From contig NZ_CP107928.1 of assembly GCF_036030735.1 (NCBI RefSeq), positions 4,960,001 to 5,024,000 of the forward strand: 64,000 nucleotides of DNA. Direction: 5' to 3'. Below are positions 30,667 through 34,527 of this stretch, one piece after another. Made by a program: the position numbers and the translations under genes. Each line of letters opens with the position of its first letter. The first letter of the stretch is position 1. Under the pieces are notes generated by a model, which was given only the letters and a program-made list of their open reading frames with translations, did no database searches and was not told where the DNA came from. The DNA comes from Streptomyces sp. NBC_00425 (GTDB lineage Bacteria > Actinomycetota > Actinomycetes > Streptomycetales > Streptomycetaceae).

Positions 30667-31113
30667 ATGAAGATCATCCTCACTCACGAGGTCTCCGGCC
30701 TCGGCGCCGCGGGCGACGTCGTCGACGTCAAGGACGGCTACGCTCGCAACTACCTGATCCCGCGGAACTTCGCGATCCGTTGGACCAAGGGTGGCGAGAA
30801 GGACGTCGAGCAGATCCGTCGTGCTCGCAAGATCCACGAGATCCAGACCATCGAGCAGGCCAACTCTGTGAAGGCCCAGCTCGAGGGCGTCAGGGTTCGT
30901 CTGGCCGTCCGCTCCGGCGACGCCGGTCGTCTCTTCGGTTCCGTCACCCCGGCCGACGTCGCCTCGGCGATCAAGGCTTCCGGTGGCCCCGAGGTCGACA
31001 AGCGCCGCATCGAGCTCGGCTCGCCGATCAAGACCCTGGGCGCTCACGAGACGTTCGTGCGTCTGCACCCCGAGGTTGCCGCCAAGGTCAACATCGAGGT
31101 CGTCGCGGCCTGA
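30667..31113 (+). CDS. rplI: 50S ribosomal protein L9
   Basis: A 148-residue L9 with the rRNA-binding N-terminal domain ([19 protein letters not shown], then [13 protein letters not shown]), a connecting helix and a C-terminal domain. GGGAAGGG precedes the ATG, 18 bases after rpsR. It is the last gene of the operon; a terminator and two parS sites follow. Confidence 0.98.
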
Positions 31114-31253: not shown

Positions 31254-32597
31254 TCAGCGGGTCGCACCGGTGATGACCCAGCGCCCTGAGCGGGCCCGCA
31301 GCCAGAGGGTGAGCATCCGCACGGCCATCATCAGCGTCATCGCTCCCCATACCGCGGTCAGACCACCGCCGAGGACCGGCACCAGCAGTGCCACGGGGGT
31401 GAAGACAGCCAGCGTGGCCACCATCGCCCAGGCCAGATAGGGGCCGTCTCCCGCACCCATCAGCACTCCGTCCAGTACGAACACGATCCCGCAGAGGGGC
31501 TGGGCGAGTGCCACCAGGAGCAGAGCGGGCAACGCGGCGTCCTTCACGGCCTGGTCGCCGGTGAACAGCGGAAGGAAGAGCGGCCGGGTGACGACGACCA
31601 GCAGGCCGAGTGCCACACCCACGGCGATGCCCCACTCGACCATGCGGCGGCAGACGTCCCGGGCGCCTTGGGGATCGTCGGCCCCCAGGTAGCGCCCGAT
31701 GATGGCCTGTCCGGCGATGGCGATGGCGTCGAGGGCGAAGGCGAGCAGGCTCCACAGGCCCAGAGCGATCTGATGGGCCGCGATGTCGTCGTCCCCGAGG
31801 CGGGCGGCCACGGCGGTGGCGATCATCAGAATCGCTCGCAGGGACAGCGTTCGGACGAGCAAGGGGGCTCCGGCCTGCGCCGACGCCCGGATTCCGGCGG
31901 CGTCGGGCCGCAGTGACGCACCATGACGGCGGGCTCCCCGGACCACCACGGCGAGGTAGACGACGGCCATGGCCCACTGGGCGATGACGGTGCCCCAGGC
32001 GGATCCGGCGATGCCGAGATCCGCACCGTAGACGAGAGCCACGTTCAGTGCGGCGTTGGCGACGAATCCACCGACGGCGACGTAGAGAGGTGTCCTCGTG
32101 TCCTGAAGTCCGCGCAGTACTCCTGTCGCCGCCAGGACGACGAGCATGGCCGGGATGCCGAGGGCCGAGACGCGCAGATAGGTCGTGGCGTACGGTGCGG
32201 CCGTGTCCGATGCGCCGAAGAGGCCTACGAGGGACGGGGCGCAGGGCAGGACGGTAATGATCACGGCGGTGCCCAGCACGAGTGCCAGCCAGATGCCGTC
32301 CATGCCCTGCCGGATGGCGGCCGGGAGGTCACCGGCGCCGACGCGGCGGGCAACGGCGGCGGTGGTGGCGTAGGCGAGGAAGACGAAGACGCTGACGGCG
32401 GTCGTGAGGAGGGCGGAGGCGATGCCGAGTCCGGCCAGTTGGGCGGTGCCGAGATGACCGACGATCGCGCTGTCGGCCAGGACGAAGAGCGGCTCGGCGA
32501 CGAGTGCGCCGAACGCCGGCACGGCCAGTGCGAGGATCTCGCGATCATGCCGTCGCCGGGGGGCCTTGGCGGGCGCGGGAGCCTGTGTCATGAGCAC
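31254..32597 (-). CDS. MATE-family efflux transporter (DinF-like)
   Basis: A 447-residue, 12-helix exporter coupled to Na+ or H+. MATE hallmarks include the LAVPAFGALVAEPLFVLADSAIVGHLG start and the second-half repeat around HQIALGLWSLLAFALDAIAIAGQAI. DinF-type members export toxic or oxidised metabolites; the substrate here is unknown. The gene runs toward oriC, unlike the flanking ribosomal and dnaB genes. Its start is close to the DnaA-box cluster that precedes dnaB. Confidence 0.9.
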   Translation of the reverse strand: MLMTQAPAPAKAPRRRHDREILALAVPAFGALVAEPLFVLADSAIVGHLGTAQLAGLGIASALLTTAVSVFVFLAYATTAAVARRVGAGDLPAAIRQGMDGIWLALVLGTAVIITVLPCAPSLVGLFGASDTAAPYATTYLRVSALGIPAMLVVLAATGVLRGLQDTRTPLYVAVGGFVANAALNVALVYGADLGIAGSAWGTVIAQWAMAVVYLAVVVRGARRHGASLRPDAAGIRASAQAGAPLLVRTLSLRAILMIATAVAARLGDDDIAAHQIALGLWSLLAFALDAIAIAGQAIIGRYLGADDPQGARDVCRRMVEWGIAVGVALGLLVVVTRPLFLPLFTGDQAVKDAALPALLLVALAQPLCGIVFVLDGVLMGAGDGPYLAWAMVATLAVFTPVALLVPVLGGGLTAVWGAMTLMMAVRMLTLWLRARSGRWVITGATR

Positions 32598-32605
32598 TAA
32601 TCTAA

Positions 32606-32868
32606 TCGTCCACAGGTAAGAGACGCAATTGTGTTGTGACCCTTACTCGGCGTTGCGTCCCACTCCTTCTCGCGCGTCGTTCGAAGGGATCTTGGTCCGA
32701 CCGGGCAACTTTTTCTTCTGCACAGCCGGTGGACGGGGAAGTCGCAGCTCAGGAGGGGTGGTCGAGAAAAATCGAGGGCTTGTTCACAGGCCTGTCCACC
32801 GGGTCGTGCACAGGTTTGGCGGAGTTCTCCACAGCATCGGGGCCGTCGTCCACATGGCCTGTGGATAA
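32606..32868. promoter_or_regulatory. Cluster of seven DnaA-box-like nonamers upstream of dnaB
   Basis: The 451-base spacer between the MATE gene and dnaB contains TCGTCCACA (32606), TTGTTCACA (32780), CTGTCCACC (32792), TCGTGCACA (32804), TTCTCCACA (32825), TCGTCCACA (32846) and, inverted, TTATCCACA (32860-32868). Starts from 32780 are spaced 12, 12, 21 and 21 bp. The last is the exact E. coli consensus; the others are within one to three changes of TTGTCCACA. It may serve DnaA titration, dnaB autoregulation or an auxiliary origin element. The remaining spacer (32870-33033) shows no gene. Confidence 0.55.
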
Positions 32869-33048
32869 CCAGATTGGCTGACGGTGCCCGCGGGCCTACC
32901 GTGGTCCGGCGCCCGCTCCGTCCGTCGGCCGGTGAAAGCTCACAAAACCGACGCATCACAAGCGGAGTTGGGCATCTCAATTGTCAGTGTCGTGCCGTAG
33001 AACAGATGCACGGCGAGGTCCGCTCGGCGGACGGGAGGAGGTGGCTCG

Positions 33049-34527
33049 GTGAGCATTTCCGAGCCCTTGGACGACCCGTGGGCCGACAGCGGTCCCAGTG
33101 ATCGTCTGCCCGCCTCCCGCCGCCGAGGTGACGGGGGCCGTGGACGTGAGGAGCAGCACGAGCGGGGCCGGGACAGCGGCGACTGGGAGGGCGGCGGGAC
33201 GCCTTTCGAGCGGGTGCCGCCGCAGGACCTCGACGCCGAGCAGTCCGTCCTCGGCGGCATGCTCCTGTCGAAGGACGCCATCGCGGACGTGGTGGAGGTC
33301 CTCAAGGGCCATGACTTCTACAAGCCGGCCCACGAGACGATCTACCAGGCGATCCTCGACGTCTACGCCAAGGGCGAGCCGGCCGACCCGATCACCATCG
33401 CGGCCGAGCTCACCAAGCGCGGCGAGATCAACAAGGTCGGCGGGGCCTCCTATCTCCACACCCTCGTCCAGACGGTGCCGACGGCCGCCAACGCGGAGTA
33501 CTACGCGGAGATCGTCCACGAGCGGGCGGTGCTGCGCCGACTGGTCGAGGCCGGCACCCGCATCACCCAGATGGGATACGCGGCCGACGACGACGTCGAC
33601 GAGATCGTCAACCGGGCCCAGGCGGAGATCTACGCCGTCACCGAGCAGCGCACCAGCGAGGACTACCTGCCGCTCGGCGACATCATGGAGGGCGCTCTCG
33701 ACGAGATCGAGGCGATCGGCTCGCGCAGCGGTGAGATGACGGGCGTGCCCACCGGCTTCACGGACCTCGACTCCCTCACCAACGGACTGCACCCGGGCCA
33801 GATGATCGTCATCGCGGCCCGTCCCGCCATGGGAAAGTCCACGCTCGCGCTGGACTTCGCGCGCGCGGCGTCGATCAAGCACAACCTGCCGAGCGTCATC
33901 TTCTCCCTCGAAATGGGTCGCAACGAGATCGCGATGCGTCTGCTGTCCGCCGAGGCCCGCGTCGCCCTTCACCACATGCGCTCCGGCACCATGACCGACG
34001 ACGACTGGACCCGGCTGGCCCGCCGGATGCCCGAGGTCTCCTCGGCGCCGCTCTACATCGACGACTCCCCGAACCTGTCGATGATGGAGATCCGCGCCAA
34101 GTGCCGCCGGCTGAAGCAGCGCAGCGACATCAAGCTCGTGATCATCGACTATCTGCAGCTGATGCAGGCCGGTGGCTCCAAGCGCTCCGAGAGCCGTCAG
34201 CAGGAGGTCTCGGACATGTCCCGTAACCTCAAGCTGCTGGCCAAGGAGCTGGAGGTGCCGGTGATCGCGCTCTCGCAGCTCAACCGTGGCCCCGAGCAGC
34301 GCACGGACAAGAAGCCGATGGTGTCCGACCTGCGTGAGTCCGGCTCCATCGAGCAGGACGCCGACATGGTGATCCTGCTGCACCGCGAGGACGCGTACGA
34401 GAAGGAGTCCCCGCGCGCGGGCGAGGCCGACATCATCGTGGGCAAGCACCGTAACGGTCCGACGGCCACGATCACGGTCGCCTTCCAGGGCCACTACTCA
34501 CGATTCGTGGACATGGCCCAGACCTGA
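33049..34527 (+). CDS. dnaB: Replicative DNA helicase DnaB
   Basis: A 492-residue hexameric 5'-3' helicase that opens the fork. An N-terminal DnaB domain (after a disordered Arg/Gly-rich start of about 50 residues) is followed by the RecA-like motor with Walker A ARPAMGKST (Lys263), Walker B region VIIDYLQLM and the QLNRGPEQR motif. No intein is present. GTG 33049 is supported by GGGAGGAGG at 33033-33041. It is located on the leading strand away from oriC, beside the ribosomal/ssb operon as in many actinobacteria. Confidence 0.97.
   Translation: MSISEPLDDPWADSGPSDRLPASRRRGDGGRGREEQHERGRDSGDWEGGGTPFERVPPQDLDAEQSVLGGMLLSKDAIADVVEVLKGHDFYKPAHETIYQAILDVYAKGEPADPITIAAELTKRGEINKVGGASYLHTLVQTVPTAANAEYYAEIVHERAVLRRLVEAGTRITQMGYAADDDVDEIVNRAQAEIYAVTEQRTSEDYLPLGDIMEGALDEIEAIGSRSGEMTGVPTGFTDLDSLTNGLHPGQMIVIAARPAMGKSTLALDFARAASIKHNLPSVIFSLEMGRNEIAMRLLSAEARVALHHMRSGTMTDDDWTRLARRMPEVSSAPLYIDDSPNLSMMEIRAKCRRLKQRSDIKLVIIDYLQLMQAGGSKRSESRQQEVSDMSRNLKLLAKELEVPVIALSQLNRGPEQRTDKKPMVSDLRESGSIEQDADMVILLHREDAYEKESPRAGEADIIVGKHRNGPTATITVAFQGHYSRFVDMAQT

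What the first reader, a model, noticed from the sequence alone, without database searches (positions are those of the whole stretch)
32606..32868. Phased cluster of DnaA-box-like sites upstream of dnaB
Seven nonamers close to TTGTCCACA lie in one 450-bp spacer; five share spacings of 12, 12, 21 and 21 bp, near integral helical turns, and an exact TTATCCACA ends the array. This resembles part of an origin or a DnaA-titration locus, placed in front of the replicative helicase gene. It could be an auxiliary DnaA reservoir, a dnaB control region, or a relic of a wider origin.
Basis: partly seen in the sequence, partly recalled or inferred. Interest (0 to 1): 0.75.

Follow-up and report, generated by a model that had tools for sequence, protein, structure and literature searches.

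The report
Phased DnaA array at dnaB promoter
In front of the gene for the replication helicase, this Streptomyces carries a rigidly spaced row of likely binding sites for the replication-starting protein DnaA, locked to the helicase gene's promoter and kept in most of the actinomycetes examined, so the starter protein probably controls supply of the helicase it loads.

Summary
The 451-bp spacer between a divergent MATE gene and dnaB holds six nonamers within one mismatch of TTNTCCACA (shuffle mean 0.28; 0 of 20,000 reach six), with the claimed 12, 12, 21, 21 spacings. In Streptomycetaceae the register is kept: 103 of 107 aligned sequences have the terminal inverted box, and of these 101, 96 and 89 have boxes (two mismatches allowed) at -14, -35 and -80. 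A sigma70-type promoter motif starts 13-15 bp from that box in 102 of 107. Beyond the family, the dnaB spacer is the densest DnaA-box window of its locus in 33 of 40 unnamed and 38 of 42 named loci (reversed-pattern controls 3 and 6), and boxes repeat every 10.85 bp (0 of 2000 random placements). DnaA binds upstream of dnaB in mycobacteria, and a variant that binds less there under-expresses dnaB (PMC7738170, passages). Best reading: a DnaA-responsive, probably activating, control platform of dnaB that also titrates DnaA; an origin relic is unlikely. Binding and activation are inferred for this genome. Related DnaA-box clusters of S. coelicolor are already known.

The parts
32606..32614 (+). 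outlying DnaA box TCGTCCACA (register -254), lying in the putative promoter of the divergent MATE gene
   Evidence: within two mismatches in 79 of 103 sequences. Its flank GGTAAG is conserved too, so part of the conservation may belong to the MATE promoter.
32716..32724 (+). DnaA box TTCTGCACA (register -144)
   Evidence: within two mismatches in 85 of 103 sequences, within one in 31
32780..32788 (+). DnaA box TTGTTCACA (register -80); TTGTCCACA or TTATCCACA in many relatives
   Evidence: 89 of 103 within two mismatches
32792..32800 (+). weak DnaA box CTGTCCACC (register -68), the least conserved position
   Evidence: 51 of 103 within two mismatches, 14 within one
32804..32812 (+). DnaA box TCGTGCACA (register -56)
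   Evidence: 75 of 103 within two mismatches, 21 within one
32825..32833 (+). DnaA box TTCTCCACA (register -35), strong
   Evidence: 96 of 103 within two mismatches, 95 within one
32846..32854 (+). DnaA box TCGTCCACA (register -14)
   Evidence: 101 of 103 within two mismatches, 87 within one
32860..32868 (-). terminal inverted DnaA box TTATCCACA (register 0), strong
   Evidence: present within one mismatch in 103 of 107 aligned sequences, the window included
32874..32902 (+). predicted dnaB promoter: -35 TTGGCT (32874-32879), 17-bp spacer, -10 TACCGT (32897-32902); start of transcription inferred near 32909
   Evidence: motif downstream of the terminal box in 104 of 107, starting 13-15 bp from it in 102; conserved hexamers; no measured start site
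33049..34527 (+). dnaB, replicative DNA helicase (492 aa)
   Evidence: TIGR00665, 560 bits, cut-off 385
31254..32597 (-). divergent MATE-family efflux transporter gene
   Evidence: TIGR00797, 351 bits, cut-off 147

Best explanation
The array is a DnaA-responsive control platform of the dnaB promoter. DnaA monomers bind boxes spaced by near-whole helical turns, so they line up on one face of the DNA. The terminal inverted box ends 5 bp before the -35 hexamer, centred about 45 bp upstream of the inferred start, where activators that touch RNA polymerase usually sit (general knowledge). DnaA therefore most probably activates dnaB, matching helicase supply to initiator level. The same cluster will also hold DnaA and so act as a titration site close to oriC. 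Shown here: the boxes, their conserved register, their helical phase, the fixed docking to a promoter motif in the family, and the association with dnaB across the class. Inferred: DnaA binding in this organism, the start site, activation rather than repression, and the titration effect.
For: Box excess over shuffles. Register conserved in Streptomycetaceae while linkers vary: 1.59 against 0.77 bits per column in an unanchored alignment, 53 non-redundant of 107 sequences; position counts, where other offsets average 0.4 and reach at most 16 of 103. Promoter motif downstream of the terminal box in 104 of 107 rows, starting 13-15 bp from it in 102 (51 of 53 non-redundant rows have the motif; shuffles 0.2%), although the distance from array to dnaB start, taken from the protein match, ranges from about 61 to 370 bp: the promoter, not the start codon, is the fixed partner. 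Four family sequences (L037, L040, L051, L129) have one more box and 11 more bases, one helical turn, and the same longer form (-46, -25, -14, 0) is found in 10 of 10 loci of the neighbouring family f3. Beyond the order: top box window in 33 of 40 loci from 26 families, reversed-pattern control 3 of 40; 38 of 42 named loci, control 6. Period 10.85 bp, mean cosine 0.69; test value 0.68 over periods 10.0-11.5, 0 of 2000 random placements; one locus per family 0.70, maximum of 1000 null sets 0.44. The array is the top window whether rplI is adjacent (13 of 16) or not (20 of 24), and it is present where dnaB lies about 370 kb from dnaA, G201/L167. DnaA binds upstream of dnaB in M. tuberculosis in vitro and M. 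smegmatis in vivo; [quoted passage not shown] dnaB is in the DnaA regulon of Caulobacter (PMC8203912, passage).
Against: I have no binding, footprint or expression data for this genome. Outside Streptomycetaceae a promoter motif within 40 bp after a box was found in only 14 of 35 loci with two or more boxes. Seven of 40 class loci and 4 of 42 named loci do not have the dnaB window on top. The I282T link is one allele and correlative. Most boxes of the array are one or two mismatches from consensus. Sequences are related, so counts are not independent events. Near oriC and near dnaB are almost always the same place.
Confidence: 0.68

Rival explanations
1. DnaA titration or datA-like locus: the cluster serves mainly to hold or inactivate DnaA near oriC, and dnaB is only the neighbour.
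For: It is one of several strong clusters within about 100 kb of oriC (PWM hits per 300 bp: oriC 14, left 11, right 9, dnaB 9; overlapping pairs on both strands are counted twice). Chromosomal clusters in S. coelicolor repress untimely initiation (as cited in PMC5742627, PMC4585315, PMC10950094; passages). Of 22 genomes with few contigs, dnaB lies 21-85 kb from dnaA in the 19 that could be measured apart from one exception (places; in 6 of them a circular contig is assumed).
Against: The array is locked to the dnaB promoter motif and follows dnaB while upstream neighbours change; it is present in the one genome with dnaB about 370 kb from dnaA. Titration alone needs no fixed distance to a promoter.
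Confidence: 0.17
2. DnaA represses dnaB: a DnaA oligomer grown from the array covers the -35 element and limits helicase when DnaA is abundant.
For: The terminal box is 5 bp from the -35 hexamer, close enough for interference; DnaA is known as activator and repressor (PMC8203912, passages).
Against: No listed box overlaps -35, -10 or the inferred start; the under-expression of dnaB together with reduced binding in M. tuberculosis I282T (PMC7738170, passages) points to activation.
Confidence: 0.1
3. Relic or accessory part of a replication origin.
For: Box number and type resemble oriC; the own oriC shows a 12-21-21-11 run on its minus strand and is itself weakly phased (20 of 1000 random placements reach its value).
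Against: A full oriC lies beside dnaA about 37 kb away. Phase at 10.85 bp is stricter here (mean cosine 0.83 on 7 distances) than in oriC (0.26 on 30). A relic would not be expected to keep register and promoter offset over a family.
Confidence: 0.03
4. Chance or general sequence conservation of a promoter region, without DnaA function.
For: Parts of the spacer outside boxes are conserved too (promoter hexamers, 32743-32751, 32981-33003).
Against: Core box columns are twice as informative as core linkers; shuffles and reversed-pattern controls give far fewer.
Confidence: 0.02

Closest known systems
DnaA binding region upstream of dnaB in mycobacteria (Rv0057 region; PMC7738170, passages seen)
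   Same: DnaA bound in front of dnaB, in vitro and in vivo, in an actinomycete; lower binding goes with lower dnaB expression in one variant
   Different: There a binding peak was reported; in the passages seen nothing was said of box register, helical phase, promoter docking or conservation at dnaB. Here these are described, without binding data.
S. coelicolor DnaA-box clusters near oriC (Smulczyk-Krawczyszyn et al. 2006, J Bacteriol 188:6184; text not held, known from citing papers and recall)
   Same: Clusters of DnaA boxes outside oriC but near it in Streptomyces. From recall the clusters are called H69, H24 and D78, and this array may well be the counterpart of H24.
   Different: From recall the study centred on titration by D78 and on replication frequency; identity with H24 could not be checked.
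DnaA regulon of Caulobacter crescentus, with predicted DnaA boxes upstream of dnaB (Hottes et al. 2005, as cited in PMC8203912 and PMC7738170, passages)
   Same: dnaB responds to DnaA and has predicted boxes upstream
   Different: Another phylum; whether an array of this form exists there was not tested.
E. coli datA
   Same: A chromosomal cluster of DnaA boxes outside oriC
   Different: datA promotes DnaA-ATP hydrolysis with IHF; nothing here tests that, and datA is not a promoter platform of dnaB (the latter recalled).

Membership tests
DnaA-regulated promoter (DnaA as transcription factor) | DnaA boxes at a plausible regulatory distance from a promoter | tested here: met
   boxes and fixed offset to a promoter motif; the promoter itself is predicted, not mapped
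DnaA-regulated promoter (DnaA as transcription factor) | DnaA binds the site | not testable with these tools
   Reported for the region upstream of dnaB in mycobacteria in PMC7738170 (passages); no data for this genome
DnaA-regulated promoter (DnaA as transcription factor) | expression changes with DnaA or with loss of the boxes | not testable with these tools
   only the I282T correlation in PMC7738170 and the Caulobacter regulon cited in PMC8203912
DnaA titration cluster of the S. coelicolor / datA kind | dense cluster of DnaA boxes outside oriC, close to oriC | tested here: met
   about 37 kb from oriC, 9 PWM hits in 300 bp
DnaA titration cluster of the S. coelicolor / datA kind | removal raises initiation frequency | not testable with these tools
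   experiment needed
Replication origin | dnaA as neighbour and main box cluster of the chromosome | tested here: not met
   dnaA and the largest cluster found lie about 37 kb away; neighbours here are MATE and dnaB
Replication origin | unwinding element and start of replication | not tested
   no unwinding or replication data; spacer 61% GC

The most novel reading that the evidence does not exclude
Across Actinomycetes DnaA is a dedicated activator of the replicative helicase gene: a helically phased row of DnaA molecules on duplex DNA, ending 5 bp from the -35 element, contacts RNA polymerase, so that initiator accumulation both fires oriC and raises supply of the helicase that DnaA loads. 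This would be an ancestral feed-forward link of the class, kept over great sequence divergence by helical phase rather than by sequence.
Probability: 0.42. Interest if true: 0.66.

Novelty: new variant of a known kind. Interest (0 to 1): 0.52.

Why it matters
If true, it turns the binding upstream of dnaB, seen as one region among five in mycobacteria, into part of an old and widespread regulatory device, and links initiator level to helicase supply in a class that includes the main antibiotic producers. It gives a clean test of how DnaA acts as a transcription factor: the geometry (phase of 10.85 bp, 5 bp to -35) makes definite predictions for half-turn insertions. It also warns that deleting such a cluster in a titration study may change dnaB expression as well.

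Tried and rejected
The first estimate of box against linker conservation anchored rows on the boxes themselves, 89 of 108 rows in register, and was biased; it was replaced by the unanchored MAFFT alignment. Similarity of spacing to oriC (12-21-21) was considered as a sign of common descent; the oriC phase is looser (mean cosine 0.26-0.27 at 10.85 bp; best period 0.34 with two mismatches allowed, reached by 20 of 1000 random placements), so no duplication is claimed. An RNA leader was looked for: no Rfam match in 32400-33200 up to E = 1. The first attempt to find rplI used a wrong reading frame (0 of 40 loci) and was redone with 30667-31113 (33 of 40). Depth beyond the class: 7 of 20 loci from elsewhere in the phylum have the dnaB window on top, control 1, so the trait is mainly one of Actinomycetes.

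Rows left out before counts: L116 (contig end) and the 11 order-level loci (L163-L172, L182) from the family alignment. Class: 40 loci were fetched of 132 matching genomes outside the own genus, picked for spread over families and for a listed dnaB N-terminus, before their boxes were looked at; the match list was cut. Phylum: 20 loci of 89 matching genomes outside the class. Family and order: 80 regions fetched. The 80 named loci are the best of 589 matches, and the 42 outside Streptomycetaceae are uneven (many Microbacterium and Arthrobacter) and hold a few uncultured bins. In one search the split by rplI was made from lists entered by hand.

Full report
What is there. The window lies at 4,960,001-5,024,000 of a 9.8-Mb one-contig genome. 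The spacer 32598-33048 separates a divergent MATE transporter gene from dnaB. rpsF and ssb lie further upstream on the plus strand, then rplI (30667-31113; recognised by its translation and by tblastn matches beside dnaB in other genomes, not by a family search). dnaA is at 4,955,925 on the minus strand with oriC beside it, about 37 kb from the array. All seven nonamers of the finding are present at the stated places with the stated spacings, plus one at 32716. Shuffles of the spacer show a clear excess; the whole window does not, so it is the clustering that is unusual.

Chromosomal setting. TTNTCCACA occurs 93 times in the genome, against 38 for the reversed pattern. In 220 kb around oriC, a matrix made from 25 oriC boxes finds four outstanding 300-bp windows: oriC (14 hits), 4,935,228 (11), 5,053,350 (9) and the dnaB spacer (9); the next have 7 and 5. 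Overlapping hits on both strands are counted twice. In nine stretches from elsewhere in the genome (144 kb) no window exceeded 4. The matrix was made from oriC, which therefore scores high by construction.

Conservation in the family. Thirty-eight named dnaB loci (Streptomyces, one Kitasatospora, one labelled Saccharothrix) and regions from unnamed family genomes were compared. In an unanchored alignment of 107 sequences, the window included (53 below 80% identity), core box columns carry 1.59 bits and core linkers 0.77. Of 107, 103 hold the terminal inverted box within one mismatch; among these the counts within two mismatches are 101 (-14), 96 (-35), 75 (-56), 51 (-68), 89 (-80), 85 (-144) and 79 (-254); other offsets average 0.4 and reach at most 16. 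Within one mismatch they are 87, 95, 21, 14, 88, 31 and 73. Thus the frame is kept while the letters between change, but the -68 box, which makes the 12+12 pair of the finding, is the weakest. Four sequences (L037, L040, L051, L129) have one more box and 11 more bases, one helical turn. All 10 loci of the neighbouring family f3 show that longer form, with boxes at -46, -25, -14 and 0, so it may be the older one. Genera g2 and g5 have a terminal module at about -35, -24, -14 and 0.

Docking to the promoter. TTGNNN-N16-18-TANNNT occurs within 75 bp from the start of the terminal box in 104 of 107 rows: it starts 14 bp after the start of the box in 98, 13-15 bp in 102, and 24 bp in two. Shuffled sequence gives 0.2%. 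The distance to the dnaB start (approximate, from the protein match) varies from 61 to 370 bp. In the window the promoter is 32874-32902. The sigma70-type reading of these hexamers is from general knowledge; no start site is measured.

The class. Forty loci from 26 families, with up to 8 kb on each side, were ranked by weighted count of boxes per 400 bp: the dnaB window is strictly first in 33; with the reversed pattern in 3. In named loci: 38 of 38 of the Streptomyces group (control 1) and 38 of 42 others (control 6). Distances between boxes on the dnaB strand gather at 11-12, 21, 44-45, 53-56, 64-66 and 76 bp; the best period is 10.85 bp with mean cosine 0.69. Tested over periods 10.0-11.5 the value is 0.68 against a random mean of 0.14, and 0 of 2000 random placements reach it. 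With one locus per family the value is 0.70, maximum of 1000 null sets 0.44. Some loci of families f18 and f24 show positions near -14/-15, -79/-80 and -144/-145 as in Streptomyces. A promoter motif (spacer 16-19 allowed) within 40 bp after a box was found in 14 of 35 loci with two or more boxes, at offsets 13-14 (4), 16 (2), 27-29 (3) and 38-40 (5); the chance is 2% per box. The other 21 show none. Elsewhere in the phylum, 7 of 20 loci are on top, control 1.

Which gene does it belong to? rplI was found in 33 of 40 class loci and lies within 1.5 kb upstream of dnaB in 16; the dnaB window is on top in 13 of these 16 and in 20 of the other 24. For 22 genomes with few contigs dnaA was placed and compared with dnaB: 19 have them 21-85 kb apart (6 of these on the assumption of a circular contig), two could not be measured (G216, different contigs; G294, contig length known only roughly), and in G201 they are about 370 kb apart with the array present (L167). 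Nearness to oriC therefore cannot be separated from nearness to dnaB except in one case.

Literature. PMC7738170 (passages): DNA affinity sequencing with M. tuberculosis DnaA gave five regions, one being Rv0057 upstream of dnaB; ChIP-seq in M. smegmatis found homologs of the same five; [quoted passage not shown] PMC8203912 (passages): dnaB belongs to the DnaA regulon of Caulobacter, with predicted boxes upstream. PMC5742627, PMC4585315 and PMC10950094 (passages) cite Smulczyk-Krawczyszyn et al. 2006 for S. coelicolor clusters that repress untimely initiation. PMC4285127 (passages) gives TT(G/C)TCCACA as the best box of actinomycetes and reports that S. coelicolor DnaA binds a single box only weakly, which fits the use of arrays. 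Passages of PMC3411110, PMC13152386 and PMC5461407 held nothing on this locus. The 2006 paper itself is not held; names and places of its clusters are recalled. A full-text search for 'DnaA' with 'upstream of dnaB' found one paper, PMC7738170, and 'DnaA box' with 'dnaB promoter' the same one; of 16 papers holding Streptomyces, DnaA box, cluster, dnaB and oriC I opened two. In what I saw there is no description of the phased, promoter-docked array; subscription papers are mostly outside this library.

Judgement. A DnaA control platform of dnaB is well supported by anatomy and by the mycobacterial data; activation is the likelier sign because of the place just upstream of -35 and the I282T result. 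Titration is a likely side effect. The finding is a refinement and wide extension of known facts rather than a new kind of system.

Noticed in passing
own genome 4935228-4935506 (L006:15228-15506) and 5053350-5053631 (L012:13350-13631): Two further strong DnaA-box clusters: the left one beside the 3' end of a rhomboid-family protease gene, the right one beside the 3' end of a prephenate dehydratase gene (both genes on the minus strand). From recall they may correspond to S. coelicolor clusters H69 and D78.
   Followed up: partly
own genome 4920750-4920776 and 5044066-5044119: Smaller groups of strong DnaA boxes within 90 kb of oriC.
   Followed up: no
window 32599-32646: Probable promoter of the divergent MATE gene on the minus strand (TTGCGT, 18 bp, TAGATT, read by eye) with a DnaA box between its hexamers and a conserved inverted repeat GTAAG...CTTAC; DnaA could affect this gene too.
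   Followed up: partly
window 32981-33003: A conserved block TTGTCA-N11-TAGAAC between the predicted promoter and the dnaB start; no Rfam match, function unknown.
   Followed up: partly
dnaB of G005, G018, G025, G044, G200, G203 and others: The dnaB match is split in two within one long open frame, which suggests inteins in a number of actinomycete dnaB genes.
   Followed up: no
L058 (record titled Saccharothrix sp. ST-888): Its array follows the Streptomycetaceae register and resembles the Kitasatospora locus L057, so the organism name of the record may be wrong.
   Followed up: no
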